From positions 4,960,001-5,024,000 of the forward strand of contig NZ_CP109199.1 of the NCBI RefSeq assembly GCF_036250065.1: a stretch of DNA of 64,000 nucleotides, in the 5' to 3' direction. The position numbers and the translations under genes were made by a program. The notes under the pieces are model-generated. The model did not search any database, was not told where the DNA came from, and was given only the letters and a program-made list of their open reading frames with translations. The DNA is from Micromonospora sp. NBC_01699. Lineage in GTDB: Bacteria; Actinomycetota; Actinomycetes; Mycobacteriales; Micromonosporaceae. Shown one piece after another: positions 43,002 through 63,032 of the stretch (the stretch's first letter is position 1; each line of letters opens with the position of its first letter).

Positions 43002-43018
43002 GAAGGAACCTCACCATC

Positions 43019-44413
43019 ATGCGACGCCCCTCCGGATTCGCAGCTTTCTCAGTGCTGTGGGCCGGACAGTTCCTGTCCGTGCTCGGCACCCGGATGACCA
43101 ACTTCGCGGTCAGCGTCTGGGTGTGGGACCAGACCGGCAGCACCACCCAGTTCACCCTCACCCTGTTCTTCGCGTTCGCCGCGACGGTGGTCTTCAGCCC
43201 CGTCGCCGGCGCGATCATCGACCGCTGGAACCGCCGCACCACCCTCATGCTCGCCGAGATCGGCACCGCGCTGGCCACGGTGGTGCTGCTCACGCTGTTC
43301 CTCACCGACACGGCCACCCTGTGGCAGCTGTACGTGCTCAACTTCGTCACCGGCGCGTTCGTCGCGTTCCAGGTGCCGGTGTTCCAGGCCACGATCACGC
43401 TGATGATGGAGCGCGGCAACTACCCGCGCGCCAACGCCATGATGTTCGCGGTCCGTACCACCCCGGAGCTGTTCGCGCCGCTGCTGGCCGCGCTGCTGCT
43501 GGCCACCACCAGCATCGAGCTGGTCCTTGCCGTGGACAGCCTGTCCTACCTGTTCGCGATCGCATCGATGCTGCTGATCGCGCTGCCATCGACCCCGCCA
43601 CGACCGAAGGACACCGCCCCGTCGACGTTCTGGCAGGACTGCCGGCTCGGCTTCACCTACATCGCGCGCAGCCGCCCGCTGCTCAACCTTGAGATCTTCC
43701 TGATCGTCATCAACATCCTCGCCGCCGTGGGCTGGCTGCTGCTGCGCCCGATGGTGCTGGAACGCACCGGCGACGACGCCGACGCGCTGGCACTGGTGCT
43801 GGCCACCGGTGCGATCGGCGGCATCGGCGGCACGATCCTGGTCGCGCTGCTCAAGACCCCCCGCGACAAGATGCGCTACGTGCTGTGGGGCACGGTGGCC
43901 TTCAGCGTCATCGGCCGGATCGTGTACGGCGTGTCCGACGTACTCCTGGTCCTGGGCTTCGCGCTGATCGTCGTGCACATGTGCATCCCCGTCATCGACG
44001 GCTACGCCACCTCGGTCTGGCAGGAGAAGGTCGAGCCGCACCTACAGGGCCGCGTCTTCGCCGCCCGGCAGTTCGTGGAGGAGCTGTCCGTGCCGATCGC
44101 GACCCTCATCGCCGGACCGCTGCTGGAGTTCGTCATCGTCCCGTGGATGGCACAGGGCCAGCCGGGCGCAAGCCTGTTCGGCGGCCTGGTCGGCACCGGG
44201 CCCGCGGGCGGCATCGGCCTGGTGTACGTCGCGATCGGCGTGCTCGGCACCCTGCTGGCCGTGGTGTCGTTCCTCACGCCCAGCCTGCGGCGCATCGAGA
44301 CGATCCTGCCCGACGTCGCACCCGAGCCCATCCCCGACGAGCCGGACCCGGCCCCGGACATCCCGGCCACCGTCGGCGCCAAGCAGCCCGTCGAAGCGAC
44401 GGTGGCCCGATGA
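43019..44413 (+). CDS. MFS transporter
   Basis: 464 residues with about twelve membrane helices; the SPVAGAIIDRWNRRTTLM loop between helices 2 and 3 is typical of MFS drug-efflux proteins. The last ~50 residues are Pro-rich and cytoplasmic. AGGAAGGAACC precedes the ATG, 17 nt after the large NRPS. Its stop overlaps the ACP start (ATGA). It is probably the exporter of the region B product. Confidence 0.9.
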   Translation: MRRPSGFAAFSVLWAGQFLSVLGTRMTNFAVSVWVWDQTGSTTQFTLTLFFAFAATVVFSPVAGAIIDRWNRRTTLMLAEIGTALATVVLLTLFLTDTATLWQLYVLNFVTGAFVAFQVPVFQATITLMMERGNYPRANAMMFAVRTTPELFAPLLAALLLATTSIELVLAVDSLSYLFAIASMLLIALPSTPPRPKDTAPSTFWQDCRLGFTYIARSRPLLNLEIFLIVINILAAVGWLLLRPMVLERTGDDADALALVLATGAIGGIGGTILVALLKTPRDKMRYVLWGTVAFSVIGRIVYGVSDVLLVLGFALIVVHMCIPVIDGYATSVWQEKVEPHLQGRVFAARQFVEELSVPIATLIAGPLLEFVIVPWMAQGQPGASLFGGLVGTGPAGGIGLVYVAIGVLGTLLAVVSFLTPSLRRIETILPDVAPEPIPDEPDPAPDIPATVGAKQPVEATVAR

Positions 44414-44658
44414 CCGCCGTCGTCGAACCCGCCCGGCTGCGCGACCTCGTCGCCGACGTCCTGGAGCTGTCACCCGGGACCGTCACCGACGAGGACAGCC
44501 CCGCCACCCGGTCCGAGTGGACCAGCCTGCGCCACCTCCAGCTGATCGTGACGCTGGAGGAGGTCTACCAGGTGTCGTTCGCCTACGAGGAGGTCCGCGA
44601 CGTGCCGTCGGTCGGATTCCTGCGTGATGTCCTGCGCCGCAAGGGGGCCGCCGCATGA
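44410..44658 (+). CDS. Discrete ACP (FkbH-associated type)
   Basis: 82 residues. The carrier-protein fold has its attachment Ser in SEWTSLRHLQLIVTLE, the W-T/D-S-L motif common in ACPs that partner FkbH-type enzymes. ATG overlaps the MFS stop and its own stop overlaps the FkbH-KASIII start, so all three are coupled. It likely holds a glyceryl or derived C3 unit. Confidence 0.87.
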   Translation: MTAVVEPARLRDLVADVLELSPGTVTDEDSPATRSEWTSLRHLQLIVTLEEVYQVSFAYEEVRDVPSVGFLRDVLRRKGAAA

Positions 44659-47246: not shown

Positions 47247-47262
47247 GAGAGAAGGAGAAGAC

Positions 47263-49140
47263 ATGCTCACCGAAACCGACGTCCTGGCCCGCGTCCGCGC
47301 CCTGCACGACCCCGCCGCACCCGGCGACCCGGACCTGCTCACCGACCTCGCGGCCCTGAACGCGCCCAAAGCACTGCGCGAAGCCGGCCGCGGCCTGGCC
47401 GCCCTCGTACCGGCCCGGTTCACCCACGACGGGCAGACCCTGCGACCCCTGCGGATAGCGGTGGCCGCCACGTTCACCGCCGAGAACGTCGCACCGATCC
47501 TGCGCACCGAACTGCTGCGCGCCGGTATCGCGCCGGAGCTGCACGTGTGCGGATTCGACCAGATGCTCGTCGAGCTCAGCGACCCCGAGTCGGACCTGGC
47601 CGCGTTCGCCCCCGACATCACCCTGTGCCTGCTGCACGATGAGGCGCTGCTGCCCCGCGACTGGGACCCCACGGACCTCGCCACCCTCACCGACGCGGCC
47701 ACCCACCGCCTCGACCTGATCGAGCACGCCGTCGCGGGCTTCACCCAGCGCTCCACCGGCACGCTCGTGCTGCACACCGTGCCCCTGGCCCGCAATCAGC
47801 AGCGCCGCGTCATCAGCTTCGGCGGCCGGGCCGAACTCGGCCGGATCTGGCGCGGCGTCAACCAGCGGCTACTGGACCTGCCGGCCCGCCACCCCTCGGT
47901 CCACGTCCTGGACTTCGAGGCGCTGCTCACCGACCACCCCGGACCGGTACGCGACGACCGCCTGTACCGCTTCGCCAGCATGGCCTGGACCATCGGCGCC
48001 GAAGCCGCCTATGCCCACGAAGCCGCCGCGTTCTGCCGGGTCACCGCAGGCCTGTCCGCCAAACTCGTCATCGTCGACCTGGACAACACCCTCTGGGACG
48101 GCGTCCTGGGCGACGACGGCCCCGAAGGCATCCAGGTCGGCGGCGCCTACCCCGGCAACTGCTACACCGACCTCCAGCAGGGCCTGCTCGCCCTGCGCCG
48201 CCAGGGCGTCCTGCTGGCCGTGTGCAGCAAGAACGAGCAGGCCAACGTCGACGCCGTCCTGGCCACCCACCCCGAACTGACCCTGCGCCCCGACGACTTC
48301 GTGGCGACCGTCGCCAACTGGGGACGCAAGGACCACAACATCCGCCAGATCGTGCAGACCCTCAACATCGGCCTGGACAGCGTCGTGTTCGTCGACGACA
48401 GCCCGTTCGAATGCGAACTGGTCAGCCGGGAGATCCCCGAGGTCCGCGTCGTCAGGCTCAGCGGCGACCCCGCCGGACACGCCGCCGCGGTGCTGGAACC
48501 GCAGTTCTTCGGCGCACTCGCCACGACGGCCACCGACCGCGAGCGCACCGGCATGTACCGCGCCCGCGCCGAACGGGAGCAGTTCGCCGCGTCGTTCGTC
48601 TCCACCGGGGACTACCTGTCCGGGCTGGGACTCACTGTCACGGTCACCCCCGCCGACGCGTACACCCTGCCCCGGATCGTCCAGCTCGCCGCGCGCACCA
48701 ACCAGTTCAACCTCAACCCCCGCGCCCACGGCGAGAGCCGCACCAGGGAGATGGCCGGCTCGCCCGACCACCTCGTCCTCGGGGTCGAGGTGTCCGACCG
48801 GTTCGGCCGCGAAGGCCTGGTCGGCGCGGCCTGGGTCGCCAAGGGCCCCGACCACTGGCTCATCGAGAACTTCGTGCTCAGCTGCCGGGTGTTCTCCCGC
48901 GGCGTCGAGCAGGCCGTGCTCGCCCACCTCGCCGCACTCGCCCGAGGCTCGTCCGCCGGCACGCTGGCCGCCGGTTACCGGCGCGGGGACCGCAACAAGG
49001 CCGCCGCCTCCCTGGTCGACCCGTTCACCGTGGGCGGCGACACAGACGGCGTCACCCGGTACGCCCTCGATCTCACCACGGCGGACGTGGCCGTACCCGA
49101 ATGGATCAATCTGGAGTGGAAGGAATCTGCCCATGTCTGA
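47263..49140 (+). CDS. FkbH-family glyceryl-ACP synthase
   Basis: 625 residues, full length. An N-terminal domain (VAATFTAENVAPILRTEL), the HAD motif VDLDNTLWDGVLGDDG (~269) with both Asp residues, AVCSKNE, FVDDSPFE, and a C-terminal GNAT-like domain (DRFGREGLVGAAW). The family dephosphorylates 1,3-bisphosphoglycerate and loads D-glycerate on an ACP. The genes that would turn this into methoxymalonate (FkbG, FkbI, FkbK types) are absent nearby, so the C3 unit is probably used as glyceryl or a simple derivative. AAGGAG lies 6-11 nt upstream and the downstream ACP overlaps its stop. Confidence 0.93.
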   Translation: MLTETDVLARVRALHDPAAPGDPDLLTDLAALNAPKALREAGRGLAALVPARFTHDGQTLRPLRIAVAATFTAENVAPILRTELLRAGIAPELHVCGFDQMLVELSDPESDLAAFAPDITLCLLHDEALLPRDWDPTDLATLTDAATHRLDLIEHAVAGFTQRSTGTLVLHTVPLARNQQRRVISFGGRAELGRIWRGVNQRLLDLPARHPSVHVLDFEALLTDHPGPVRDDRLYRFASMAWTIGAEAAYAHEAAAFCRVTAGLSAKLVIVDLDNTLWDGVLGDDGPEGIQVGGAYPGNCYTDLQQGLLALRRQGVLLAVCSKNEQANVDAVLATHPELTLRPDDFVATVANWGRKDHNIRQIVQTLNIGLDSVVFVDDSPFECELVSREIPEVRVVRLSGDPAGHAAAVLEPQFFGALATTATDRERTGMYRARAEREQFAASFVSTGDYLSGLGLTVTVTPADAYTLPRIVQLAARTNQFNLNPRAHGESRTREMAGSPDHLVLGVEVSDRFGREGLVGAAWVAKGPDHWLIENFVLSCRVFSRGVEQAVLAHLAALARGSSAGTLAAGYRRGDRNKAAASLVDPFTVGGDTDGVTRYALDLTTADVAVPEWINLEWKESAHV

Positions 49141-49369
49141 TGTCACCGGCACCGTCGTCGGGCTCGTCGAGCGGGTCACCGAGTCGCCCGACATCTCCCC
49201 GGCGTCGAGTTTCCACAGCCTCGCCGACTGGACGAGCCTGGCCGCGCTGCGCCTGCTCACCGAAATCGAGGACGAGTTCGGGGTGCAGCTCGACCTGCGC
49301 ACCTACCTCGCCGTGAACGACGTCGGGCAGCTGTCCGACCTGGTGAGCACCGCGCTGGGGGACCGATGA
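49133..49369 (+). CDS. Second discrete ACP (FkbH-associated type)
   Basis: 78 residues; attachment Ser in LADWTSLAALRLLTEIE. It overlaps the FkbH stop by 8 nt and the VOC start by 4 nt. It is the best partner for the intact FkbH, while the ACP at 44.4 kb would partner the fusion protein; this pairing is inferred only from position. Confidence 0.87.
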   Translation: MSDVTGTVVGLVERVTESPDISPASSFHSLADWTSLAALRLLTEIEDEFGVQLDLRTYLAVNDVGQLSDLVSTALGDR

Positions 49370-49830
49370 TCCTGCGTATCGACCATGTCGGCATGGTGGC
49401 GGCGAATCTGAAGGCGGCCGCCGCCGGGCTGCGCATGCTGACCATGAGCCCCGACGAGCACGACATCGTCGCCACCTACGACGTGGAGTGCCAGTTCTGG
49501 CGCCGAGAGGGCGATCCGACCGCGATCGAGATCGTCACCCCGGCCGGACCGTCCAGCCAGGTCAGCGGGCATCTGCGCCGCAGTGGGCCCGGCCTGCACC
49601 ATGTGGCGTTCGAGGTCGACGACATCGTCGCTGAGCTGGCCGTCCTGCGCGCCCGGGGTGCCGTACTGGTCGACGACGAGCCGCGGCCGGGTGGGCAGCC
49701 GGGGTTGCGGATCGCATTCGTGCACCTCGGGCCCGCGACCGGGCTGCTGGTCGAGCTCGTCCAGTACGCCGAGCCTCGGGTTCGGCCGGTGGCCGAGGTG
49801 CCCCGGCAGCGCGAAGCCGTCGGCGGATGA
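49366..49830 (+). CDS. VOC/glyoxalase-fold protein, methylmalonyl-CoA epimerase-like
   Basis: 154 residues with two beta-alpha-beta-beta-beta halves. The metal-ligand pattern is visible: RIDHVGMV (His7), GPGLHHVAFEV and LVELVQYAEP. It resembles methylmalonyl-CoA epimerases and may epimerise or isomerise the C3 or acyl unit on the ACP. ATG overlaps the ACP stop (ATGA). It is the last gene before a strong terminator. Confidence 0.82.
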   Translation: MILRIDHVGMVAANLKAAAAGLRMLTMSPDEHDIVATYDVECQFWRREGDPTAIEIVTPAGPSSQVSGHLRRSGPGLHHVAFEVDDIVAELAVLRARGAVLVDDEPRPGGQPGLRIAFVHLGPATGLLVELVQYAEPRVRPVAEVPRQREAVGG

Positions 49831-49842
49831 GCTCGGACGTGC

Positions 49843-49885
49843 GGTGAACGCCGGGCACCGGCCGTATCGGTGCCCGGCGTTCACC
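49843..49885 (+). terminator. Strong hairpin terminator after the VOC gene
   Basis: Perfect 18-bp stem (arm GGTGAACGCCGGGCACCG) with a 7-base loop, 12 bases after the VOC stop. No T-run follows, as is common in actinomycetes. It separates the thioesterase gene from the main operon. Confidence 0.85.
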
Positions 49886-49929
49886 CAGCCTGCACGCCTT
49901 CTGTCGGCTCGATGACTTTGGGGAACCCG

Positions 49930-50652
49930 TTGATCGTGCGTGACATCGTCTCCCCGCGATGGCTGCCGTTCGGTGGCACCGGGCGCGGGGTGTCAGTGTT
50001 CTGCCTGCCGCATGCGGGGGGCACCGCCCGCTCCTACCGGAGCTGGGCCGACTCCACGGCCAATGCGGACGTGAACTTCGTTCCGGTGGAGCTTCCCGGC
50101 CACGGCAGCCGGATCGCCGAAGCGCCGGTCGCCGAGCTCGACGCGCTGACCGAGCAGCTGGTCGAGGTGGTGGACGCGTACGCCGCCGAGACCGGACGTC
50201 CGTACGCGCTGTTCGGACACAGCATGGGTGGCCTGTTGGCGTACCACCTGGCGGGCCGTCTCGCGGCGTCCGCCCGGCCCGGGCCGGTCTGCCTCGTCGT
50301 CTCCGGCTGCCGGCCGCCGCAGCAGCAGCCCGCTATCGATCTGCTCGGTCTCGACGACGACACGCTCGTGGCAACACTGGTGCGCGTCGGCGGCCTGACG
50401 GCGGAGATGGCGGCGGAGACCGAGCTGATGGCGGTGATTCTTCCCGCGCTGCGAGCTGACCTGGCTCTGTTCGCCGGCTACCGGCCGCCCGGGTCCCGGC
50501 TTTCGGCTCCGATCATCGCGCTGGCGGGGACCCAGGATCCGCTGGCAGAACCGCAGGATCAGCGGGGCTGGCGGTCGCACACCAGCCGGGGCCTGCTCCG
50601 GCGCGTGTTCCGCGGTGGTCACTTTTTTTACACGACACTCCGGACGAGGTGA
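49930..50652 (+). CDS. Type II thioesterase, C-terminus frameshifted
   Basis: About 240 residues. The alpha/beta-hydrolase editing thioesterase of NRPS/PKS systems: PHAGGTARSYR near the start, catalytic Ser in GHSMGG, Asp in AGTQDPL, His in RGGHFFY. TTG 49930, five bases after GGGGAA, is preferred; GTG 49936 and ATG 49912 are in frame. At 50627-50633 a run of seven T ends the usual frame soon after as TTLRTR. One extra T would give HFFLHDTPDEVMREIAQSI and on to 50741, the normal family ending. So the last ~30 residues are lost by a single-base indel, either real or a sequencing error. All three catalytic residues lie before the break. Confidence 0.85.
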   Translation: MIVRDIVSPRWLPFGGTGRGVSVFCLPHAGGTARSYRSWADSTANADVNFVPVELPGHGSRIAEAPVAELDALTEQLVEVVDAYAAETGRPYALFGHSMGGLLAYHLAGRLAASARPGPVCLVVSGCRPPQQQPAIDLLGLDDDTLVATLVRVGGLTAEMAAETELMAVILPALRADLALFAGYRPPGSRLSAPIIALAGTQDPLAEPQDQRGWRSHTSRGLLRRVFRGGHFFYTTLRTR

Positions 50653-52744: not shown

Positions 52745-52822
52745 TCCGGTGAATTCAGCCTCGCAGAATGAGTGGAAGCGCGCTACAAGGCTAGCCAAGA
52801 TGCATTTCCCGAGAGGAGACTG

Positions 52823-53911
52823 ATGGTGCTCGACCCAATTGTCGCGCTCAATTCGGCGCTTCCGGCGCGCCCACCGGCCGACGGTCCGGCGCGGAGGGCG
52901 GGCGTGGTGCAGGCACTTGAGATCCCTGCCGAGGGACTCAGGAATGTCCGCTTCGGCTGGTCGATGGTGACCGAGGCCACCCTGTCGTTGTGGGCGGCCG
53001 CCGGAGACGACCAGGCGCCTTGGGTCCGACGGTGGTGGAGCGATGTACGCGGACGGCTACCGCCGGGCAGACCGCGCCTGTTGCGCGAGATCATCGGGAC
53101 GGGCGGATACCCGCCGGACTTCCTCCTACCGGTGGTGGCCGGCGGCTCCACCTCCCTCGATGAGGAACTGCACGCGCTGGTGACCACATCGACGGGGTCG
53201 ATCCGAGATGACCTGACCTGCGCCATCGCTGATGCCAAGCGAACGGGGCGCACCGGGCCGGCGCTGCCGCTGGCCACACGCCTGCTGGACGCGCGCGGCG
53301 AGGGCGCCTACCTGGCCGCCTTGGCCGATGAGCTGAGAACCTACTGGGCGGCGGCTTTGGCCCCGTACTGGGACGGGCTGCGGGCCGACCTGGAGTTGGA
53401 ATTCGACCATCGGGCGCGAACACTCGCCGCCGATGGGGTCCAGACGGTCATCGCCGACATGAGCCGACACCTGGCCTGGAGCGGCGACACGCTACTCGTC
53501 GACATGCCGCCCCGCGCCCGACTAACCGCCAACGCGGGGCTGTGGTGTGTCGGTTCGGCGTTCATGGGCGATCGGATTCTCCTGACCAGCCGTCCCGACG
53601 ACACCGTAGCCATCTACTTCGCTGTCGGGGCGGCGGGCGCCACGTCGGGGAGGCAACCGATCAGACTAATTTCGCGGGACCTCACCGAACTTCTCGGCGC
53701 GACCCGTGCCGCGTTGTTGGCCACCCTGGACATCGTGCACACCACCGCCGACCTCGCCCGGCGCCACAACCTTTCGGCCGCTACCGTCTCTCATCATCTG
53801 GGCATCCTGCACAAGGCGGGCCTGCTCCATCGCCGGCGTGACGGCAAGCGCGTGCTGTATCGGCGCAGCCCTCTGGGTAACGCCCTCACCCGCCGAAAGA
53901 TATCTCAATGA
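52823..53911 (+). CDS. ArsR-type transcriptional regulator with long N-terminal domain
   Basis: 362 residues from ATG 52823 (GAGAGGAG upstream). The long N-terminal part (~1-260) has no enzyme motif and resembles the uncharacterised N-terminal region of actinobacterial ArsR-like regulators. The C-terminal ~80 residues form a winged helix: TTADLARRHNLSAATVSHHL then KAGLLHRRRDGKRVLYRR. Metal-binding Cys of classical ArsR are not seen. It is the only complete regulator near the knottin-like island 0.9 kb downstream, but a decayed IS element lies between them. Confidence 0.82.
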   Translation: MVLDPIVALNSALPARPPADGPARRAGVVQALEIPAEGLRNVRFGWSMVTEATLSLWAAAGDDQAPWVRRWWSDVRGRLPPGRPRLLREIIGTGGYPPDFLLPVVAGGSTSLDEELHALVTTSTGSIRDDLTCAIADAKRTGRTGPALPLATRLLDARGEGAYLAALADELRTYWAAALAPYWDGLRADLELEFDHRARTLAADGVQTVIADMSRHLAWSGDTLLVDMPPRARLTANAGLWCVGSAFMGDRILLTSRPDDTVAIYFAVGAAGATSGRQPIRLISRDLTELLGATRAALLATLDIVHTTADLARRHNLSAATVSHHLGILHKAGLLHRRRDGKRVLYRRSPLGNALTRRKISQ

Positions 53912-53929
53912 GTTTTGAGCGGGGTGTCA

Positions 53930-54600
53930 GGCTGATTGGAGATGGGGCGTCGTTGCCGGCGGGCCGGGCCTCCTCGGGTGAGTCGGCGGATCAGCCGATT
54001 GATCGCGCTCACCGGATCAGGGCCTCGGACACCGCCGGGTGACGTTTGTAGTCACGGGCCAGGCGCCGGTACGAGACGAGCCACACCAGGGTCGGCTCGG
54101 CCACCCGCCGCCTCGGATGGACCACGAAGCCTTCCTGTCCACCCGACTTCCGAACAATCGCAAATGAGCGCGGAGAACGTCCCGGCACCCACCGACCAGA
54201 TGGCCAGCGAAGCCCCGGTCGGCGAACACGAACCGGATCGGAGTGCCGGCGCAAACCGCCACTAGGGCGTCCTTTCCGCCGTCTCGGTCGGTCCTGCCAT
54301 GTCGCCACGAGGACCCACACGCAGACCAGCAGGCCGAGGGTGACGGTCACGACTGACCGCTTCCGACCGTTGGCCCTCGTCAAGGGTCGTAGCTGCGAGT
54401 GTCCCGGCCGACCGCGTCGGCCCCCTTCACCGACAGGTACACGACGACTACGTCCCGGCGCGAATGCCTCGGCACCCGCCCGGGTTCCTTTGTCGGCGGC
54501 GACAAGGGCTCGACGATCTCTCACTGCGCATCGGTCAGGTTCCGGTCGTACGTCCGTAGCCGCTCTACCGAGGAACTCTCTGACGGAGATCCACTCACCC
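53930..54600 (-). pseudogene. IS5-type transposase remnant
   Basis: The minus strand gives recognisable pieces in three frames: NLTDAQ at the start, KGADAVGRDTRSYDP, ANGRKRSVVTVTLGLLVCVW, PIRFVFADRGFAGHLV, and a C-terminal GFVVHPRRRVAEPTLVWL with RRLARDYKRHP. At least two frameshifts, in-frame stops and a large N-terminal deletion make it inactive. It lies just upstream of the knottin-like precursor. Confidence 0.75.
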
Positions 54601-54742
54601 GACGGACACACTGTGTGACGCCCTGCCAAACACTCACTCGGGCCGTTGAAAATACGCGGACCAGTTGACCTCGTCGTTTCGACTCCAGTCAAATCGACGA
54701 GCAGCCGCTCCTCGACAGGACGCAAGCATTCGTGTTGAGATC

Positions 54743-54772
54743 TTTACATAGGCTCACACTGGTGAATCTATT
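54743..54772 (+). promoter_or_regulatory. Candidate promoter of the knottin-like precursor operon
   Basis: TTTACA, 18 nt, TCTATT, ending 24 nt before the precursor ATG, in an AT-richer patch. Consensus match only; the position suits a short leader holding only the strong ribosome site GAGGAGGTG. Confidence 0.45.
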
Positions 54773-54796
54773 AACTCATCCGAGGAGGTGAAAAGT

Positions 54797-54991
54797 ATGA
54801 TCACAACGTCCATTGTTGACAGGCTGGCCAGCAACAGCCTTCAGCAGCACATGTTCGAGTCCCAGTCGACTGTGGCTCAGGAATGCATACCGAATGGCGG
54901 CAGGTGTCTCTTCACGTATACCTGCTGCGACGGCTACTACTGCCGCCTCTACGTCGGTTGGTCGGCGGACGGCCACTGCCGTCCAGGCTGA
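54797..54991 (+). CDS. Knottin-like six-cysteine precursor peptide
   Basis: 64 residues; ATG 54797 has GAGGAGGTG 7 nt upstream, a near-perfect ribosome site. Residues 1-28 or so are a leader without a hydrophobic signal segment (LASNSLQQHMFESQSTVAQ). The core from ~29 has Cys at 30, 37, 43, 44, 49 and 61, i.e. C-x6-C-x5-CC-x4-C-x11-C. This is the spacing of inhibitor cystine knots. The opening ECIPNGGRC matches plant Mj-AMP/PAFP antimicrobial knottins (CIxNGGRC). The next genes are lasso-type maturation and export genes, which implies a ribosomal peptide processed in the cytoplasm and exported by the ABC protein. The core has no Gly1 plus Asp/Glu7-9 arrangement, so it is not an ordinary lasso peptide. 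Confidence 0.85.
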   Translation: MITTSIVDRLASNSLQQHMFESQSTVAQECIPNGGRCLFTYTCCDGYYCRLYVGWSADGHCRPG

Positions 54992-55162
54992 GGCACTTCC
55001 GTCTCGGTCGTCGGCGCGTGCCCTTGTTGGGCTTCAGCGGCGGCTACGCAATTTCGTGCCGGGTCGGGCCGCTCACTGCGCGGCCCGCCCGGTGCGATCG
55101 ATGCGGGCAACCCACGCTGCGACGCCAGAACTGACATGAATGCAAGAAAGGGGGGTTGTGTG

Positions 55163-55531
55163 ATGGTGCGCACGGCGGCCATGGAAGCGCGTGAGTTTCT
55201 GGAGTCTGTACGGGGTGATGGGGGGACGTATCGGATCGAATCGTGGCCGCAGATGATACCGGTTCGCCGGGCGCAGCGAGTCGACGACGTCGTGGCATCG
55301 TTGCGGGTGGAGCAGCGCAACAGTGTCGGGTTTCTGGACCCGGTAGAGGATGCGCTGTATGTGACGGTGGGGCTGCGGGGTTTGGGTTTCCCAGCTTCGT
55401 TCCACCTGGGCAGGGAGACCGTGCCGGCGTTGCCACCGGCAGGTTTCTACGCGTGGGTGGAGTGTGACGGCGAAGTGGTGAGCACCTCCCTGCCCGTCAA
55501 GGAGACATATCTCGAGGTACATCGAGCATGA
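55163..55531 (+). CDS. Lasso B2-like protein lacking catalytic Cys and His
   Basis: About 122 residues from ATG 55163 (AAAGGGGGG upstream); an in-frame ATG at 55136 is less well placed. It aligns by eye with lasso-peptide B2 leader peptidases through RAQRVDDVVASLRV, VTVGLRGLGFPASFHLG and YAWVECDGEVV. B2 proteins have a catalytic Cys in GCLxRS and a His in AHAWV. Here these read GFLDPVE and FYAWV, so both are gone. It may be a pseudoenzyme that only binds the precursor. Its stop overlaps the AsnB-like gene start. Confidence 0.75.
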   Translation: MVRTAAMEAREFLESVRGDGGTYRIESWPQMIPVRRAQRVDDVVASLRVEQRNSVGFLDPVEDALYVTVGLRGLGFPASFHLGRETVPALPPAGFYAWVECDGEVVSTSLPVKETYLEVHRA

Positions 55532-56985
55532 ACAAGGTAGAGATAACCAAGCATGGGGTCCGGGCGACCGGTCCGGGGTCGACGTTTTCCGGCCTGCGAG
55601 TCGCTCAATCGAGGGATTCGTTCGATCTGGCGCTGGAGCTGCCGTCGACGCGATCGGTCTACTACCGGATCGACCCCTCAGGGTTGGAGTGGGGCGAGGA
55701 CCTGGCCGCTTTCGCAGGTAGCGCAGGGATTCCCGGCCCAGAGGCGTGGGATCTGCTCGCCATGGTGCACGGAACCGTGCCGGCGCCGGATGATGCGCTG
55801 GGTGTGCCCGGGGTCCAACGGCTGACGGTCGGATCGGTGGTGCGGGTGGACGCCGGCGGGGTCCGGGTAGGGCGACACGCGCCACAATTGCCCCGCCCCG
55901 GGGGAAGCCTGGTCGACGCGGTCGGTGCGGCGCTACCGGATGGTCAGTTCGGGATCGCCTACAGCGGTGGACTCTCTTCGGCGTTTCTGGCGGTGGCGGC
56001 ACGGCGGGCGGGCAAGCGGCCGGTGCTGGTACACGCGGATCTGGGCGCGGCCTTCACACACCTGCCGGTGCCTGGGATTCCTGGCCTGGAACTGCGACGG
56101 GTGCCCGTGGATGTTTCAGAGCTGCTCGACCATCATCCGATCGCCACCGAGCTACCACGACCGCCGACGCCGGAGGTGGAGGCGCGTCGCCGCCTCGTCG
56201 CGAAGTTGTCCGCGGCGGTGGACCTGCCGCTGGCAACCGGGGCGCTGCTGGAGGACCTGGTCTCGATCCGCCTACCCGAAGCCGACATCAGCGATGGAAA
56301 TCTGCTCGAATGCGAGCCGTTCCACGTGGCCGGAATCCTGCCGACACTGGCCGAGGCGCGCAGGCTCCTCGAAGAACAGACCGTGCATGCGCGCATGGCT
56401 GCTGCGGAAGGCCCATCGACGGAGCAGCAGCCCGGTTCTCAGCCACAACGGCCGGTGGAAAAGTACTTCGTGCCTGGTCTGACTGCAACAGGCCGAGAGG
56501 AGTACGACATCGCGCGACAGCTGCGCCTCCCACTTTGGCAGGAGCACATCACGTCCCTGCCACCGGCGCTGGGCAAGGCCGACGCCGCTCTGGCCGAGCG
56601 TGGGAAAGCCGGCGCACTGCTGCCGGCTCTTGCCCCGCAGGTCCTCGCCGCCGTGGTTGCCCTCTCAGCCGACGACATCGGCCGGATCGAGCGGGGGGTG
56701 TTCCGGAACAACCGGCCGCTGTGGCAGGCGATCGACGCGCACGGCGTGACCGGCGTACGACGAGCGGCACCGGGCTACTGGCTGCGCCTAGCCGCGGCCG
56801 AACACCTCAATGCACAGCGGGACAAGCTGGCGGCGGATGTCGCCGAGTCGCCCCTGGCGAAGGCCGGCCTGATTGACGCCACAGAGGTCGCCAAGGCACT
56901 GCGTGACCCTCGGCTGATGACCGAGAACGCCCTGGCCCTGCTCCGGCTGGTGTGGACCGATCACTGGATGGGACGTCAATCATGA
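55528..56985 (+). CDS. Asparagine-synthetase/lasso-cyclase-like protein with altered PP-loop
   Basis: 485 residues. An N-terminal beta-rich part (~1-115) without a Cys nucleophile, then an ATP-pyrophosphatase-type domain. The PP-loop SGGxDSS reads SGGLSSA (~145), losing the conserved Asp. Lasso cyclases (AsnB homologues) adenylate a side-chain carboxylate to close an isopeptide ring. With this change and a core lacking the lasso acceptor position, the reaction may differ or be lost. Start ATG 55528 overlaps the B2-like stop and the stop overlaps the PqqD-like start, so the three are coupled. Confidence 0.8.
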   Translation: MNKVEITKHGVRATGPGSTFSGLRVAQSRDSFDLALELPSTRSVYYRIDPSGLEWGEDLAAFAGSAGIPGPEAWDLLAMVHGTVPAPDDALGVPGVQRLTVGSVVRVDAGGVRVGRHAPQLPRPGGSLVDAVGAALPDGQFGIAYSGGLSSAFLAVAARRAGKRPVLVHADLGAAFTHLPVPGIPGLELRRVPVDVSELLDHHPIATELPRPPTPEVEARRRLVAKLSAAVDLPLATGALLEDLVSIRLPEADISDGNLLECEPFHVAGILPTLAEARRLLEEQTVHARMAAAEGPSTEQQPGSQPQRPVEKYFVPGLTATGREEYDIARQLRLPLWQEHITSLPPALGKADAALAERGKAGALLPALAPQVLAAVVALSADDIGRIERGVFRNNRPLWQAIDAHGVTGVRRAAPGYWLRLAAAEHLNAQRDKLAADVAESPLAKAGLIDATEVAKALRDPRLMTENALALLRLVWTDHWMGRQS

Positions 56986-57194
56986 ACACGGTGAAGCTTG
57001 CCCCCCAGGTGACCCTGACCCTCCTGCCGTACGGCGGCGCGGTTCTGGTGAATGGCGTGAGTCTGGCAATCGCCGAGTGCGATGAGCCACAGCGACTGGC
57101 GATCAACGAACTGCTGGCCGGCGGTGCACCGGAAGGGCAGTTGGCCCAGCTCCTGATTGCGGCCGGATGGGTGGTGCGCGGCGATGCTGGCTGA
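56982..57194 (+). CDS. PqqD-like RiPP recognition element
   Basis: 70 residues. The winged-helix PqqD pattern is visible: strands LAPQVTLTLLPYGGAVLVN, then ECDEPQRLAINELLAGG and a last helix QLAQLLIAAGW. These proteins bind the leader peptide and present the precursor to modifying enzymes (the lasso B1 role). It starts within the AsnB-like stop (ATGA) and overlaps the MauE-like gene by 11 nt. Confidence 0.85.
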   Translation: MNTVKLAPQVTLTLLPYGGAVLVNGVSLAIAECDEPQRLAINELLAGGAPEGQLAQLLIAAGWVVRGDAG

Positions 57195-57960
57195 TCTGCT
57201 GGTGGCGGTCCTGGCCGGTCCTCTCGTGGCTTCCGGTGTGGCGAAGCTGGCGGCGCCAACCGAGAAACTGTCCTGGCCGATTCGCCGCGGGCCGCTGGTG
57301 GCGCCGCACGGCCCGCGGCTGATCGGCGCCGCCGAGCTGATCGGCGCGGTGCTCCTCATTGTGGTGCCCGGGCGCCTTGCCGCGCTCTGCGGTCTGGTGG
57401 CGTACCTGGCGCTGACCATCGTGGCCCACGCACTCCGTGGCCAGAGGTGTGCCTGCTTCGGGCTGGCACGGCTGGCCTCGGTAGGTCACACCCATGTCCT
57501 CGGGAACGCCGCCGGCGCGTTGCTGGCAGCCGTCGCACTGCTGCTGGGCCCCGGCTCCCAAACGGCGTCGCGCGTCGTGTTCGCGGCAGCGGCAACCGCC
57601 CTGATCACCTGTGTGCTCCTCGTGTTGGACCACGGCGCCCGCACGCTCGACGCAGCGAAGGAAGAACAGATCGTGGAATCCATGCACGCGGTGTACGGCG
57701 TACGGCTCTACACCTCGGAGTCGTGTCCATCCTGCCGGGCACTGAAGAAGCTAGTGGCGGGGATGGAGCCGGCTCGCCGCGACGCGGTCGCCGAAACTGT
57801 GCTCGGACCCCATGATGCGCCACCGGCATCGATGGCGGAGATGGGGGTGCCTTGCGCGCAGGGCCTCGACGCCGCAGGACGACCCGTCGGCGAACCGGTC
57901 TCCGGAATCGGCTCGGTCAAGGGTCTGATCAACTCGATCGTCGTCACCGCACATGCTTGA
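57184..57960 (+). CDS. MauE/DoxX-family membrane protein with thioredoxin-like CxxC tail
   Basis: 258 residues from ATG 57184. About four membrane helices (~5-150) include the MauE motif CACFG after the second helix pair. Residues ~165-258 are a soluble domain with YTSESCPSCRALKK, a thioredoxin-type CPSC motif. MauE-like proteins are thought to take part in disulfide chemistry. Next to a six-Cys peptide this is a natural candidate for making or reshuffling its disulfides, or for supplying electrons. It overlaps the S9 peptidase gene by 8 nt. Confidence 0.82.
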   Translation: MLADLLVAVLAGPLVASGVAKLAAPTEKLSWPIRRGPLVAPHGPRLIGAAELIGAVLLIVVPGRLAALCGLVAYLALTIVAHALRGQRCACFGLARLASVGHTHVLGNAAGALLAAVALLLGPGSQTASRVVFAAAATALITCVLLVLDHGARTLDAAKEEQIVESMHAVYGVRLYTSESCPSCRALKKLVAGMEPARRDAVAETVLGPHDAPPASMAEMGVPCAQGLDAAGRPVGEPVSGIGSVKGLINSIVVTAHA

Positions 57961-59455
57961 CAGCTGGCGGGAAAGCTCAATGACCGGGCCGTGGGCGCGG
58001 CTGACCGCCCCGACCGAGCCCTCGATCTCGCAGGCGAACCCTGCCGCCGTGTGCTGGCGCGACCTGTGGGTGGACCCGGACCTGGCCGGGCTCGTCACGG
58101 ACCGGGCACGGCTGACCCGCATCGAGATCCACCCAGATGGCACGTCACCCGGATGGACGTTACCGATCACCGACGTGCTGCCCACACCACTCACGTGGCA
58201 CCCCGACCGGCCCCTCGTCGCCGGGCTGGTGGTCCGGGACCGACACGCCCATCCGTGGGTGGCCGACTACGCCGCCCAGACTGTCACACTGTTCGACCAA
58301 GTGCGGGCAGCGACCTCGCACGCACGGCCTCCCCATGTCTGGGTGGGTGACCGCCTCGTCGTGCTCCTGGCGTCGCCGGCAACGCCCGCCCCGGTCGCAC
58401 AAGGGAACCCGGTCGCACAAGGGAACCCGGTCGCGCTGGAGGCGACGGGTCCGGGATATGTGAAATTCCAGCCCACCCTGCCCGAACTCGCCGCTGTCGT
58501 CGCCGCCCGGCCCGCGGCGCTGGACCTGCTTACCGGCCAGACACTCGGACTGACCGACCCGCTGGTGGTCCGGCGTCTGGCCGCCCTGGACGGGGAACTC
58601 TATCTGGAGTACGCCGAGGACGATCCCGTCTCCGAGGAGGGCCTGTCCTGGTCCGGCCTCGCCGTGCCGGTGGACGGATCCGGCCCGCCCCGACGGGCCA
58701 CCGAAACTCCCCACGACCTGCCCCACGATGCGCTGCCAGAAGAGGCGGCACCAAACCCCCAACCCACCCCGCCGATGCCGATGCCGATGCCGATCAGCAT
58801 CGATACCGGGCATCACCAGGCCAGGCTCGCTCAGTACGGGGAAGAGCCGGCAGCAGTGTTGTGGCTACGCGATGCCCGCCCCGCAGGCAGGGTGACGGCG
58901 CCACCCCTGCTGGATACTGGATACGCGGTCGCGAACCTGGACCTGCCGTTGCACTGGCCGCCCGACGCCACGGTGGAATCCCTGCACCAGCAGATAGTCG
59001 AAACGGTCCACGCCGCGCTGGCCACCATTGACGGTCCGGTGCTGGTGGGCGGGCACAGCTTCAGCGCCACCCTCGCCCTTTACGCCCTCGCCCACATACC
59101 TGAGCTGCGTGGAGCGATCGCGCACAGCGGCTGCTACAACCGCACTCTCACTCCGACCGGTTGGCAACACGAAAAACGTCACCTGTGGCAGGCCCCGGAC
59201 ATCTACCGCGCCTTCAGCGCCCTGGAGTTCGCCCACCGGCTCGATCGGCCTGTGCTGTTGGCCCACGGCACCAAGGACAGCAACCCCGCCACCGCCCCCG
59301 GACAATCCGTCGAGCTCTACAAGGCCATCGTCGCCAACGGCGGCACCGCCCGTCTGCTCCTCCTTCCCGGCGCGGGCCACGCGTTCCATTACGCCGAACA
59401 CCTCGCGTTCCTACGCGCCGAGCACCACAGCTGGATCACACGGTGGACCCGGTGA
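57953..59455 (+). CDS. S9-type prolyl-oligopeptidase-like serine peptidase
   Basis: About 500 residues; ATG 57953 overlaps the previous stop, and ATG 57980 with GGGAAAG upstream is an alternative. The N-terminal ~270 residues are propeller-like. A Pro/Met-rich linker (PMPMPMPI, ~275) precedes the alpha/beta-hydrolase domain with Ser in GGHSFSA (~367), Asp in HGTKDSNP (~439) and His in GAGHAFHY (~475). The triad is complete and no signal peptide is seen. S9 enzymes act as isopeptidases in some lasso clusters. Here, where the B2-like protein is degenerate, it could instead be the leader protease. Confidence 0.85.
   Translation: MLDSWRESSMTGPWARLTAPTEPSISQANPAAVCWRDLWVDPDLAGLVTDRARLTRIEIHPDGTSPGWTLPITDVLPTPLTWHPDRPLVAGLVVRDRHAHPWVADYAAQTVTLFDQVRAATSHARPPHVWVGDRLVVLLASPATPAPVAQGNPVAQGNPVALEATGPGYVKFQPTLPELAAVVAARPAALDLLTGQTLGLTDPLVVRRLAALDGELYLEYAEDDPVSEEGLSWSGLAVPVDGSGPPRRATETPHDLPHDALPEEAAPNPQPTPPMPMPMPISIDTGHHQARLAQYGEEPAAVLWLRDARPAGRVTAPPLLDTGYAVANLDLPLHWPPDATVESLHQQIVETVHAALATIDGPVLVGGHSFSATLALYALAHIPELRGAIAHSGCYNRTLTPTGWQHEKRHLWQAPDIYRAFSALEFAHRLDRPVLLAHGTKDSNPATAPGQSVELYKAIVANGGTARLLLLPGAGHAFHYAEHLAFLRAEHHSWITRWTR
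58393..58428 (+). repeat. 18-bp direct repeat inside the peptidase gene
   Basis: Two identical tandem copies of GGTCGCACAAGGGAACCC, encoding PVAQGNPVAQGN in the propeller-like part; an apparently recent slippage duplication that keeps the frame. Confidence 0.85.
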
Positions 59456-61260
59456 CGCCCAGACTCACGCTCCGCGACATGTGCCGGGCGGCGACACGGG
59501 CCGTACGCATGTCCTGGGCGGCGGACCGGCGGGGTGTCCTCACCGTGGTCGGGCTTCAGCTGACCACCGCAGTCGGCCTGGCCGGTGCGTTGCTGCTGTT
59601 GCGGGGCATGGTCGACGACGTGATGCCCCTGGCCGGCAGGGGAGGTGCCGAAGCGGACCCCTCAACGCTAGCCTCCGGGCTGGTGGCGCTGATCGCCCTC
59701 GGCGCGGCGGGTGGCATCCTGCAAACGCTCAGTAAGATGCGACAGCAGATACTCACCGATCGGGTAGACCGGCACGTCATCTCACTGGTGTTACGCACCG
59801 CCGCTCATACCGAGCTGTGGGAATTCGAAGACCCCGACTTCCATGACAGGTTGCAGCGCGCCGTACACGCCGCGCGACACAAGCCGGCCATGGTGATCAT
59901 AATGCTGGTCACGATGATGCAGGCGGCGCTGACCGTGCTGGCCGTGGCGGGCGTCTTCATTACCATCGCCTGGTGGCTGCTCCCACTGGCGACTCTCACC
60001 GCGTTGCCGCTGTTCAAGGCCGCCAAGGACGAACGCGACGCCATATACACAATGCACCACTCCCTAGCCGAGAACCACCGCCGCCGCCAATACTTCGAGC
60101 AGTTACTCACCGGCAGAGACGAGGCCAAGGAAATCCGCGCTTTGGACCTCGGCGCCACCCTCCACACCCGCTGGGACAACGAATACGCTCAGGAACTGAC
60201 CGGCATGGTCCGCCTGATCCGCACCCATGCGGGACGCGAAATCCTCGCCAGACTCGTATCCAGTGCTCTGATCGTCGGCGTCATCACCACCGTCTGGGCC
60301 CTGGTGGACGCCGGCGCGGTGTCCCTGGCCGGCGCCTCCACCGGCCTGGTCGGACTCTGGTTGCTGTCGACTCGGATGGCGATGGCCAGTCACATGCTCA
60401 ACGACATGGGCCAGTCCCTGTACTTCCTCAAGGACCTGCACGACTTCGCGGCCCCGGCCACCGCGCCACCACCTAGGCCCGCTGAACCCGTGCGCCCGTT
60501 CCGGACGCTGCGTGCGCGCGATCTGACCTTCGCCTACCCCGGCACCGATCAACGCACCCTCCACGGCATCGACATCTCACTGCATGAAGGCGAAATCATC
60601 GCCCTCGTCGGGGTCAACGGCTCCGGAAAAACCACCCTCGCGAAGATCCTCGCCGGCCTGTACGCGCCCACCGGCGGAAGCCTGGACCACGACGGTCGCC
60701 CGGCCACCGACCTGCATCAACTGCGCCATGGCTGCGCCGTGGTGTTCCAGGACTTCGTCCGCTACAAGGTGACCGCTTACGACAACATCGCGTTCGGACG
60801 CGTCGAGGACCAACCCCACGACAGCCGCACCAGATGCGCCGCCGAATCCGCCGGTGTCGCGGCCCTCGTGGAGGGCCTTCCCGACGGCTACGACACCGTC
60901 CTCGGGCGCGAGTTCACCAACGGCACGGACCTCTCGGGTGGCCAGTGGCAGAAACTCGCCATCGCCCGCGCCTTCTACCGCGATTCCCCCTTTATCATCC
61001 TCGACGAGCCCACCGCCGCCCTGGATCCTCAGGCCGAAGCAGACCTCTTCGCCCGCATCCGCCAGCTCTTCGCCGGCCGCACGGTCCTGCTCATCTCGCA
61101 CCGATTCTCCAGCGTCCGCAGCGCCGACCGCATCTACGTCCTGGACGCCGGCCGCATCATCGAACACGGCACCCACACCCAACTCATGCGCGCCCAGGGC
61201 CGCTACGCCGACCTCTTCCTCACTCAGGCAGCGGGGTACCTCGACGCGACGCCGGCCTGA
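59452..61260 (+). CDS. ABC exporter, fused membrane and ATPase domains
   Basis: 602 residues from GTG 59452, overlapping the peptidase stop (GTGA). Membrane domain with about six helices (~25-345), then the ATPase: Walker A GVNGSGKTT (~387), signature LSGGQWQ (~494), Walker B IILDEPTAALD and switch His in LISHRFS. No N-terminal C39 peptidase is present. It is the lasso-D type half transporter and should export the matured Cys-rich peptide and give immunity. Two TTA leucine codons (59791, 60103) stand out in this GC-rich DNA. The peptide genes end here. Confidence 0.92.
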   Translation: MTPRLTLRDMCRAATRAVRMSWAADRRGVLTVVGLQLTTAVGLAGALLLLRGMVDDVMPLAGRGGAEADPSTLASGLVALIALGAAGGILQTLSKMRQQILTDRVDRHVISLVLRTAAHTELWEFEDPDFHDRLQRAVHAARHKPAMVIIMLVTMMQAALTVLAVAGVFITIAWWLLPLATLTALPLFKAAKDERDAIYTMHHSLAENHRRRQYFEQLLTGRDEAKEIRALDLGATLHTRWDNEYAQELTGMVRLIRTHAGREILARLVSSALIVGVITTVWALVDAGAVSLAGASTGLVGLWLLSTRMAMASHMLNDMGQSLYFLKDLHDFAAPATAPPPRPAEPVRPFRTLRARDLTFAYPGTDQRTLHGIDISLHEGEIIALVGVNGSGKTTLAKILAGLYAPTGGSLDHDGRPATDLHQLRHGCAVVFQDFVRYKVTAYDNIAFGRVEDQPHDSRTRCAAESAGVAALVEGLPDGYDTVLGREFTNGTDLSGGQWQKLAIARAFYRDSPFIILDEPTAALDPQAEADLFARIRQLFAGRTVLLISHRFSSVRSADRIYVLDAGRIIEHGTHTQLMRAQGRYADLFLTQAAGYLDATPA

Positions 61261-62771: not shown

Positions 62772-63032
62772 CTACCCCGGCAGCCAGGCCCGGAAGTACC
62801 AGCCGTTGTACTCGCTGTTGGGCAGGGTGCGGTATTCACAGTTGCTGCTCACCTCACCCCAGTAGCTGGCATCGATACGGTAGAGCTCGCACTCGTCGTA
62901 GGTGACGAAATAGCCGTTCCAATCGAATTGCACGGCGGCGGCCGGGGCCGGCTGGACGGTGAAGCCGACGGCTGCCGCGGCGGCGGCGACAACCGCGAGG
63001 CGGGTGAGCCGGCGGCGGAGCGGCTGGGGCAT
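62772..63032 (-). CDS. Small secreted protein
   Basis: 86 residues with a basic start (QPLRRRLTRL), an Ala-rich signal segment and a likely cleavage near PAAA-VQFDW (~34). The mature ~52 residues are rich in Tyr/Trp and hold two Cys (DECELY, SSNCEY), suggesting one disulfide. No family is recognised. Confidence 0.7.
   Translation of the reverse strand: MPQPLRRRLTRLAVVAAAAAAVGFTVQPAPAAAVQFDWNGYFVTYDECELYRIDASYWGEVSSNCEYRTLPNSEYNGWYFRAWLPG

What the first reader, a model, noticed from the sequence alone, without database searches (positions are those of the whole stretch)
54743..61260. A bacterial knottin-like peptide encoded with a lasso-type maturation cassette
The 64-aa precursor has the cysteine spacing C-x6-C-x5-CC-x4-C-x11-C of inhibitor cystine knots, and its ECIPNGGRC opening matches plant Mj-AMP/PAFP knottins. 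It has a non-hydrophobic leader and is followed, with overlapping stops and starts, by B2-like, AsnB-like, PqqD-like, MauE-thioredoxin-like, S9 peptidase and ABC exporter genes. Lasso machinery normally serves Cys-poor peptides with a Gly1/Asp-Glu7-9 ring, which is absent here. A ribosomal peptide class joining a cystine knot to lasso-type genes would be new to me. Reports of actinobacterial defensin-like peptides may describe relatives, but I cannot check that here.
Basis: partly seen in the sequence, partly recalled or inferred. Interest (0 to 1): 0.95.

Follow-up and report, generated by a model that had tools for sequence, protein, structure and literature searches.

The report
Bacterial knottin with defensin-type maturation cassette
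A soil-type actinobacterium carries a gene for a small, six-cysteine "knottin-like" peptide, a pattern best known from plants and animal venoms, together with a dedicated set of helper genes related to those that serve bacterial defensins, pointing to a shared bacterial production line for disulfide-locked peptides.

Summary
A 64-aa ORF (54797-54991) with six Cys in knottin spacing precedes six overlapping genes to 61260. Twelve precursors in all (window and 11 relatives) keep the leader (64% mean identity) and six Cys as C-x6-C-x5-CC-x(3-8)-C-x(4-12)-C; the core varies (32% outside shared Cys). "Lasso-type" is only partly right: the PqqD-like protein is actinodefensin-associated protein B (NF038044, above cut-off), the AsnB-like protein lacks the SGGxDS Asp in 17 of 17 clusters compared, the B2-like protein lacks the lasso Cys/His motifs, and the window core has no Asp/Glu at ring positions. 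The closest known system is the actinodefensin/actifensin cluster; homologous cassettes carry a defensin (3), a 12-Cys (1) or an 8-Cys peptide (1). New clue: the S9 enzyme is closest to S9D glutamyl endopeptidase (8.5e-54), and each of 17 precursors has Glu 0-2 residues before Cys1; actifensin begins right after such a Glu. Proposal: PqqD-like binds the leader, degenerate AsnB/B2 proteins scaffold, MauE-thioredoxin makes disulfides, S9D cuts after Glu29, ABC exports. New variant of a known kind; topology, cleavage and activity untested.

The parts
54797..54991 (+). Precursor: leader residues 1-29 (MITTSIVDRLASNSLQQHMFESQSTVAQE) and six-Cys core residues 30-64
   Evidence: related precursors with six Cys in 12 of 12 clusters; dN/dS 0.10-0.19 in three pairs; Pfam Conotoxin 0.0018 and Toxin_35 0.01, both below cut-off
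54881..54883 (+). Glu29 codon: predicted leader cleavage between Glu29 and Cys30
   Evidence: Glu directly before Cys1 in 11 of 12 knottin precursors and one residue earlier in L030; cleavage itself is inference from S9D specificity (PMC12871690 passages) and the actifensin N-terminus (PMC6989792 passages)
54992..55162 (+). Gap between precursor and B2-like gene with a strong predicted hairpin, possible attenuator
   Evidence: RNA fold z -3.18; no terminator-like site by the consensus scan
55163..55531 (+). B2-like protein (degenerate transglutaminase-like), 122 aa
   Evidence: Pfam Transglut_core3 4.3e-4 and NCBIfam lasso B2 0.04, both below cut-off; lasso CLxRS motif and AHAWV His absent; dN/dS 0.19-0.25 in three pairs
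55528..56985 (+). AsnB-like protein, related to actinodefensin-associated protein A, 485 aa; SGGLSS in place of SGGxDS
   Evidence: NF038043 1.8e-4, below cut-off; hhalign of 7 knottin-cluster against 3 defensin-cluster sequences: prob 99.4, E 2.5e-21, 433 columns; motif aligned
56982..57194 (+). PqqD-like protein, actinodefensin-associated protein B, 70 aa
   Evidence: NF038044 8.3e-20, 71.1 bits, cut-off 45
57184..57960 (+). MauE-type membrane protein with a C-terminal thioredoxin-like CPSC motif, 258 aa
   Evidence: Pfam MauE 5.4e-5, below cut-off; CxCFG and a CxxC in 17 of 17 clusters
57953..59455 (+). S9 peptidase of S9D (glutamyl endopeptidase) type, 500 aa, Ser-Asp-His present
   Evidence: Pfam Peptidase_S9 1.5e-10; PDB CGEP 10eq 3.4e-27, profile 8.5e-54; triad in 10 of 10 aligned
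59443..61260 (+). ABC exporter, 605 aa
   Evidence: Pfam ABC_tran 6.8e-30; no peptidase among the 20 Pfam families at E<=1
52772..53911 (+). ArsR-like winged-helix protein, possible cluster regulator (true start may lie further in)
   Evidence: Pfam HTH_5 8.2e-6; conserved beside the cassette in L028 (85%) and L029 (80%); no hit at 1e-6 in L008, L009, L030, L031

Best explanation
The locus makes and exports a knottin-type (inhibitor cystine knot) peptide through a cassette of the actinodefensin kind. Shown by sequence: a conserved leader plus a six-Cys core; conserved linkage to the same genes; homology of the cassette to actinodefensin clusters; absence of the lasso catalytic motifs. Inferred: the PqqD-like protein binds the leader; the AsnB-like and B2-like proteins, descended from lasso-type enzymes but probably without catalysis, act as scaffold or chaperone; MauE-thioredoxin drives disulfide formation; the S9D-type peptidase cuts after Glu29 and frees a 35-residue peptide beginning with Cys30; the ABC protein exports it. 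The product is most likely a secreted antimicrobial or signalling peptide, as actifensin is antimicrobial.
For: All six Cys in 12 of 12 precursors; mean pairwise identity 0.64 in the leader against 0.32 in the core outside shared Cys. PqqD-like = NF038044 over cut-off in the window, L030 and L031. AsnB-like homologous to the defensin-cluster A proteins over 433 columns. Seventeen clusters (chosen for their AsnB-like or NF038044 match) each have AsnB-like, MauE-Trx, S9 and B2-like genes, three of the S9 cut off by the end of the sequence; they hold 12 knottin, 3 defensin, one 12-Cys and one 8-Cys precursor. S9 is nearest to glutamyl endopeptidase CGEP, 8.5e-54 against 1.6e-9 for the next protein. 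CGEP cuts strictly after Glu (PMC12871690, passages). Glu lies 0-2 residues before Cys1 in 17 of 17 precursors. Actifensin has Glu at -1 and a sequenced N-terminal Gly (PMC6989792, passages). Most actinobacterial defensins are said to be excised at Glu or Asp (PMC8819291, passages).
Against: No product, disulfide map or activity is known here. AlphaFold confidence is low (precursor mean pLDDT 56; core 70 for the best of five models, 42 for the worst); the only fold match, a spider ICK toxin analogue, has E 7. The hinge loop proposed to favour Glu in CGEP (W689, Y691, P692) is not clearly kept: the window reads LWLRD, and the PDB match covers the catalytic core. Four near-group S9 read GHSFS and L085 reads GHSFA where the others with that motif read GHSFG; L091 reads GASFG. 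The passage seen lists S9D in plants, algae, cyanobacteria and Gram-negative bacteria, not actinobacteria. Core net charge is only -3 to +1, unlike many antimicrobial peptides. By eye, the positive-inside rule would put the thioredoxin domain in the cytoplasm, so the side of oxidation is unsettled. B2 homology by profile comparison is weak (hhalign prob 25, E 7.8e-4). The 17 Glu cases are not independent.
Confidence: 0.62

Rival explanations
1. True lasso-type RiPP: B2 removes the leader and the AsnB-like enzyme closes a macrolactam on the Cys-rich core, giving a disulfide-braced lasso.
For: PqqD-like, B2-like and AsnB-like genes in one operon; Transglut_core3 matches below cut-off.
Against: SGGxDS Asp absent in 17 of 17 AsnB-like proteins aligned. 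Lasso B2 Cys motif and His absent in the B2-like proteins but present in the 4 lasso B2 used as controls; the ORFs of L030, L032 and L015 hold no Cys at all. No Asp or Glu at core positions 7-9 of the window precursor. No lasso B2 match in the window's genome (0).
Confidence: 0.05
2. The cassette only exports and oxidises the peptide; the leader is removed by an unlinked protease, and the S9 enzyme serves immunity or degradation.
For: Actifensin clusters also hold a subtilisin-like protease (afnC) beside an alpha/beta hydrolase (afnE) (PMC6989792, passages); the Glu-favouring hinge of CGEP is not clearly kept.
Against: S9 gene in 17 of 17 clusters, Glu 0-2 residues before Cys1 in 17 of 17 precursors, S9D the closest solved relative.
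Confidence: 0.22
3. The six-Cys peptide is not a knottin but another three-disulfide fold.
For: Low-confidence models; a C5-C6 loop of 11-12 residues in the five near-group precursors; cassette relatives carry other Cys-rich scaffolds.
Against: CC pair and spacing fit ICK in 12 of 12, two of them with C-x6-C-x5-CC-x4-C-x4-C (L086, L087); PDB profile hits are mostly named toxins, best 0.0012.
Confidence: 0.2

Closest known systems
Actinodefensin / actifensin gene clusters (NCBIfam NF038042, NF038043, NF038044; actifensin of Actinomyces ruminicola)
   Same: Associated protein B above cut-off; homologous A protein; ABC and alpha/beta-hydrolase genes; leader ending in Glu before a Cys-rich core
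   Different: Precursor has a six-Cys ICK pattern, not the CS-alpha-beta defensin pattern; no NF038042 match; A protein far below the family cut-off; no actifensin genes were available here for direct comparison, only Micromonosporaceae defensin clusters
Lasso peptide systems (B1/B2/C)
   Same: PqqD-like, B2-like and AsnB-like gene set, probably of shared ancestry
   Different: Catalytic motifs absent, no ring residues in the window core, Cys-rich core, leader removal probably by an S9D enzyme
Inhibitor cystine knot peptides (spider, cone snail, plant knottins)
   Same: Cys framework C-C-CC-C-C
   Different: Bacterial, leader-guided, with a dedicated cassette; sequence similarity weak and probably convergent (inference)
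S9D glutamyl endopeptidases (chloroplast CGEP)
   Same: Catalytic core with GGHS and the YNRTLTP-GFQ-E-R-LW block
   Different: Window protein is 500 aa against a 907-residue CGEP chain; hinge loop diverged; cleavage after Glu untested

Membership tests
Actinodefensin system | Precursor matches NF038042 (actinodefensin) | tested here: not met
   No NCBIfam match at E<=1 for the window precursor
Actinodefensin system | Associated protein B, NF038044 | tested here: met
   71.1 bits, cut-off 45; but L089, whose AsnB and B2 look like intact lasso proteins, also passes it
Actinodefensin system | Associated protein A, NF038043 | tested here: not met
   20.9 bits, cut-off 250; the three defensin clusters here also fall below it (64.7, 36.5, 44.1 bits); homology shown by hhalign
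Lasso peptide | B2 Cys and His motifs | tested here: not met
   Alignment with 4 lasso B2 controls and 14 B2-like sequences
Lasso peptide | Cyclase with SGGxDS | tested here: not met
   SGGLSS in the window; Asp absent in 17 of 17
Lasso peptide | Asp/Glu at core position 7-9 (recalled definition) | tested here: not met
   Window core CIPNGGRCL has R, C, L there, counting from Cys30
Inhibitor cystine knot | Six Cys with C-C-CC-C-C spacing | tested here: met
   12 of 12 precursors
Inhibitor cystine knot | Bonds 1-4, 2-5, 3-6 with the third threaded | not testable with these tools
   Models of low confidence
S9D glutamyl endopeptidase | Catalytic triad and S9D block | tested here: met
S9D glutamyl endopeptidase | Glu-selective hinge loop / Glu specificity | tested here: inconclusive
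   Hinge residues of CGEP not clearly kept; no assay

The most novel reading that the evidence does not exclude
Actinobacteria hold a general production line for disulfide-rich peptides in which a lasso-type modification complex has lost its chemistry and been kept as a leader-binding scaffold, a MauE-thioredoxin protein makes the disulfides and an S9D glutamyl endopeptidase frees the core; the same line, in separate lineages, serves knottins, defensins and at least two other Cys-rich scaffolds.
Probability: 0.45. Interest if true: 0.82.

Novelty: new variant of a known kind. Interest (0 to 1): 0.68.

Why it matters
Knottins are valued as stable drug scaffolds but have been studied mainly from eukaryotes (recalled). 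Twelve bacterial clusters with a shared leader and a dedicated cassette would give a genetic route to such peptides, offer a candidate enzyme for the unexplained cut after Glu in actifensin-type leaders, and show a RiPP enzyme set apparently turned into a non-catalytic assembly. A leader swap between knottin and defensin precursors would be a direct test.

Tried and rejected
Lasso macrolactam: rejected on missing catalytic motifs and ring residues. Plant Mj-AMP resemblance: set aside, since relatives do not keep the motif. Plasmid-borne relatives: no match of the AsnB-like protein in the plasmid collection. Defence-system link: no PADLOC match at E<=0.01 for P0002, P0004 or P0005; weak HTH-type matches only for the ArsR-like protein. 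Structure models: too weak to settle topology. The dN/dS for the AsnB-like gene (0.69) is invalid, because the two genes were compared without aligning their indels; it is not used. The stretch 53896-54648 between regulator and cassette did not align to relatives; I first noted it as a transposase remnant, but Pfam gave no match for its ORF, so that is unproven. A first reading of the L091 AsnB-like motif from a pattern search was wrong; the alignment gives GGGLGA there.

Rows not examined or dropped: one search listed 10 of 354 genomes at E<=0.001; the 5 with E of 5e-6 or worse were not counted as knottin clusters (one of them, G763, is the defensin cluster L032; the other four were not opened). 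One search's two weak matches (2e-4, 4e-4) were not opened. Of 5 matches, only the window's own was above the cut-off; the rest were not opened. In one search, of 8 NF038044 matches below the cut-off I opened G036:C3 (L015), G482 (L048: no cassette) and G033 (L017: no cassette); G688, G757, G760 and G033 have lasso B2 matches beside the site, as has G042; G766 and G626 were not opened. In one search, of 16 matches below the cut-off I opened G1132 (L091) and G1209 (L092, lasso B2 with Cys and His). Two of its 9 above-cut-off genomes (G1415 = L089, G1334 = L090) showed no MauE or S9 homologue and are not counted; L089's contig ends about 0.5 kb past the PqqD-like gene, so its lack of those genes says little.
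Full report
What is there. The precursor ORF (54797-54991, +) encodes MITTSIVDRLASNSLQQHMFESQSTVAQE followed by CIPNGGRCLFTYTCCDGYYCRLYVGWSADGHCRPG. Six genes follow, to 61260, overlapping each other. The precursor is separated from them by 171 bp with a strong predicted hairpin. An ArsR-like gene upstream (52772-53911) is conserved beside the cassette in L028 and L029 but gave no hit in L008, L009, L030 or L031.

Conservation. The one scan of genome contigs with the AsnB-like protein returned three relatives, in Streptosporangium, Nonomuraea and Micromonospora. Among 354 genomes of the window's family 10 had a match at E<=0.001, of which 5 strong (E 7e-99 or better), the window's own included. 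In a sample of 394 genomes of the class 3 matched, two of them weakly and the third the window's own. With NF038044, above its cut-off: 2 of 61 relatives, 1 of 396 in a phylum sample, the window's own, 8 of 354 in the window's family and 9 of 341 in the family of the Nonomuraea genome; these searches overlap in genomes and score a limited number of candidates each. Of the 8, 5 carry a knottin and 3 a defensin precursor. Of the 9, 7 carry a knottin precursor and 2 (L089, L090) showed no MauE or S9 homologue. In all, 12 knottin precursors were read; for Streptosporangium the precursor lies near the end of another contig, so adjacency is not shown there. All 12 have exactly six Cys with first gaps 6, 5, 0; the fourth gap is 3-8 and the fifth 4-12. 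Mean pairwise identity is 0.64 in the leader, 0.46 in the core and 0.32 in the core without shared Cys. dN/dS of the precursor is 0.14, 0.10 and 0.19 in the three near-group pairs. Cassette DNA is 85% identical between the window and Streptosporangium over 6.1 kb, which suggests transfer between families (inference).

What family the cassette belongs to. The PqqD-like protein matches actinodefensin-associated protein B above cut-off. The AsnB-like protein matches protein A only weakly (1.8e-4), yet a profile of 7 knottin-cluster sequences aligns with one of 3 defensin-cluster sequences over 433 columns, prob 99.4. The precursors of those defensin clusters (L014, L032, L047) match NF038042 at 9.6e-11, 9.5e-9 and 1.1e-11, below its cut-off. 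Two further clusters carry other Cys-rich peptides: 12 Cys in L015 and 8 Cys in L091. In trees of MauE-Trx (17 rows) and of the S9 catalytic part (14 rows) each scaffold type is one group, with the least possible number of changes (support of the defensin group in the first tree 87/89, the knottin group 99/99 and 97/97). So each scaffold goes with its own cassette lineage and no recent swapping is seen in these rows.

Lasso machinery is present in outline only. At the SGGxDS position an alignment of all 17 AsnB-like proteins reads SGGLSS, SGGLGS, SGGVSS, SGGMAS, SGGLAS, SGGVAS, SGGAGS, AGTASR (L032) or GGGLGA (L091); none has the Asp. For contrast, L089 reads SGGTDS. The B2-like proteins have no CLxRS motif and no His before the AWV block, where the 4 lasso B2 controls have both (L028, L009 and L008 are). 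The B2-like ORFs of L030, L032 and L015 hold no Cys at all; L014, L047 and L091 have a Cys upstream of the aligned site, so for these three a displaced Cys is not excluded. Homology of the B2-like protein to lasso B2 rests on Transglut_core3 matches below cut-off (2.2e-5 in L015, 2.3e-5 in L088, 4.3e-4 in the window, 7.4e-3 in L091, none for L014 and L047) and a weak profile match. Its dN/dS of 0.19-0.25 says that it is kept, probably as a pseudoenzyme (inference).

Leader removal. The nearest solved relative of the S9 protein is chloroplast glutamyl endopeptidase: 3.4e-27 with the single sequence, 8.5e-54 with a ten-sequence profile, against 1.6e-9 for the next protein. Ser, Asp and His are kept in 10 of 10 aligned sequences; L091 also keeps them, with GASFG in place of GHSFG; L009, L084 and L087 are cut off before or within the catalytic part. 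CGEP cuts strictly after Glu (PMC12871690, abstract and passages). Glu lies directly before Cys1 in 11 of 12 knottin precursors and one residue earlier in L030; directly before it in the 3 defensins; one residue earlier in L091 and two in L015. The knottin leaders are related, so these are not 17 independent cases. Actifensin has Glu at -1, a Gly N-terminus by sequencing and a conserved G-X-E motif; its authors proposed an exopeptidase (PMC6989792, abstract and passages). [quoted passage not shown] Linking these cuts to the S9D-type enzyme is my inference. Against it: the hinge residues that CGEP is proposed to use for Glu are not clearly kept, and the passage seen does not name actinobacteria among S9D carriers.

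Fold of the core. The core profile finds 13 PDB sequences at E<=10, 10 of them named toxins or venom peptides, best 0.0012. Pfam matches of the precursors are mostly Cys-rich toxin families below cut-off, besides Dickkopf_N and others; L087 passes UPF0506, L030 has none. AlphaFold on the core gives strands at 14-16, 21-27 and 33-35 with mean pLDDT 70 in the best of five models; the only Foldseek match is a spider ICK toxin analogue at E 7. The similarity to animal toxins is one of framework; nothing here shows any activity, and the net charge of the core is -3 to +1.

Literature. In the held PMC library: actinodefensin, 0 papers; actifensin with gene cluster, 20 papers, the defensin relatives; knottin with RiPP, 7; cystine knot with lasso, 4; inhibitor cystine knot with actinobacteria, 1; disulfide-rich genome mining, 0; bacterial knottin phrases, 0; cystine knot with bacteriocin, 93 of which 15 were listed; the gene set, 1. 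By title and start of abstract, none of the listed papers describes a knottin with this cassette. Most subscription journals are not held, so it may be in print elsewhere.

Scores. Interest 0.68: a bacterial knottin with a dedicated cassette and a testable leader protease would surprise specialists, but it sits inside the known actinodefensin kind and no product is known.

Noticed in passing
window 42794-50652: A neighbouring biosynthetic-looking region: MFS transporter (8e-31), a protein with ketosynthase-III-type domains (9.4e-13), a weak HAD-type match (5e-4, below cut-off) and a thioesterase (1.6e-38).
   Followed up: partly
L015:11126-11356 (-): Twelve-Cys peptide precursor in a cassette of this kind, with a weak Pfam match to the fungal defensin copsin family (0.004, below cut-off).
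   Followed up: partly
L091:7498-7752 (-): Eight-Cys peptide precursor beside S9, MauE, B2-like and ABC genes; no NCBIfam or Pfam match at E<=0.1.
   Followed up: partly
L014:5758-5994 and L047:4713-4913: Two defensin precursors with identical cores but partly different leaders.
   Followed up: no
window 54985-55165: Strong hairpin between precursor and downstream genes (z -3.18), possibly setting the precursor-to-enzyme ratio.
   Followed up: no
window 62772-63032 (-): ORF of 86 aa with a signal-peptide-like start (by eye) and two Cys; no family match above cut-off.
   Followed up: no
L089:537-3150 (-): Lasso-like pair, AsnB-like with SGGTDS and B2-like with Cys and His, whose PqqD-like protein nevertheless passes NF038044 (63.7 bits); that model alone does not separate the two kinds.
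   Followed up: partly
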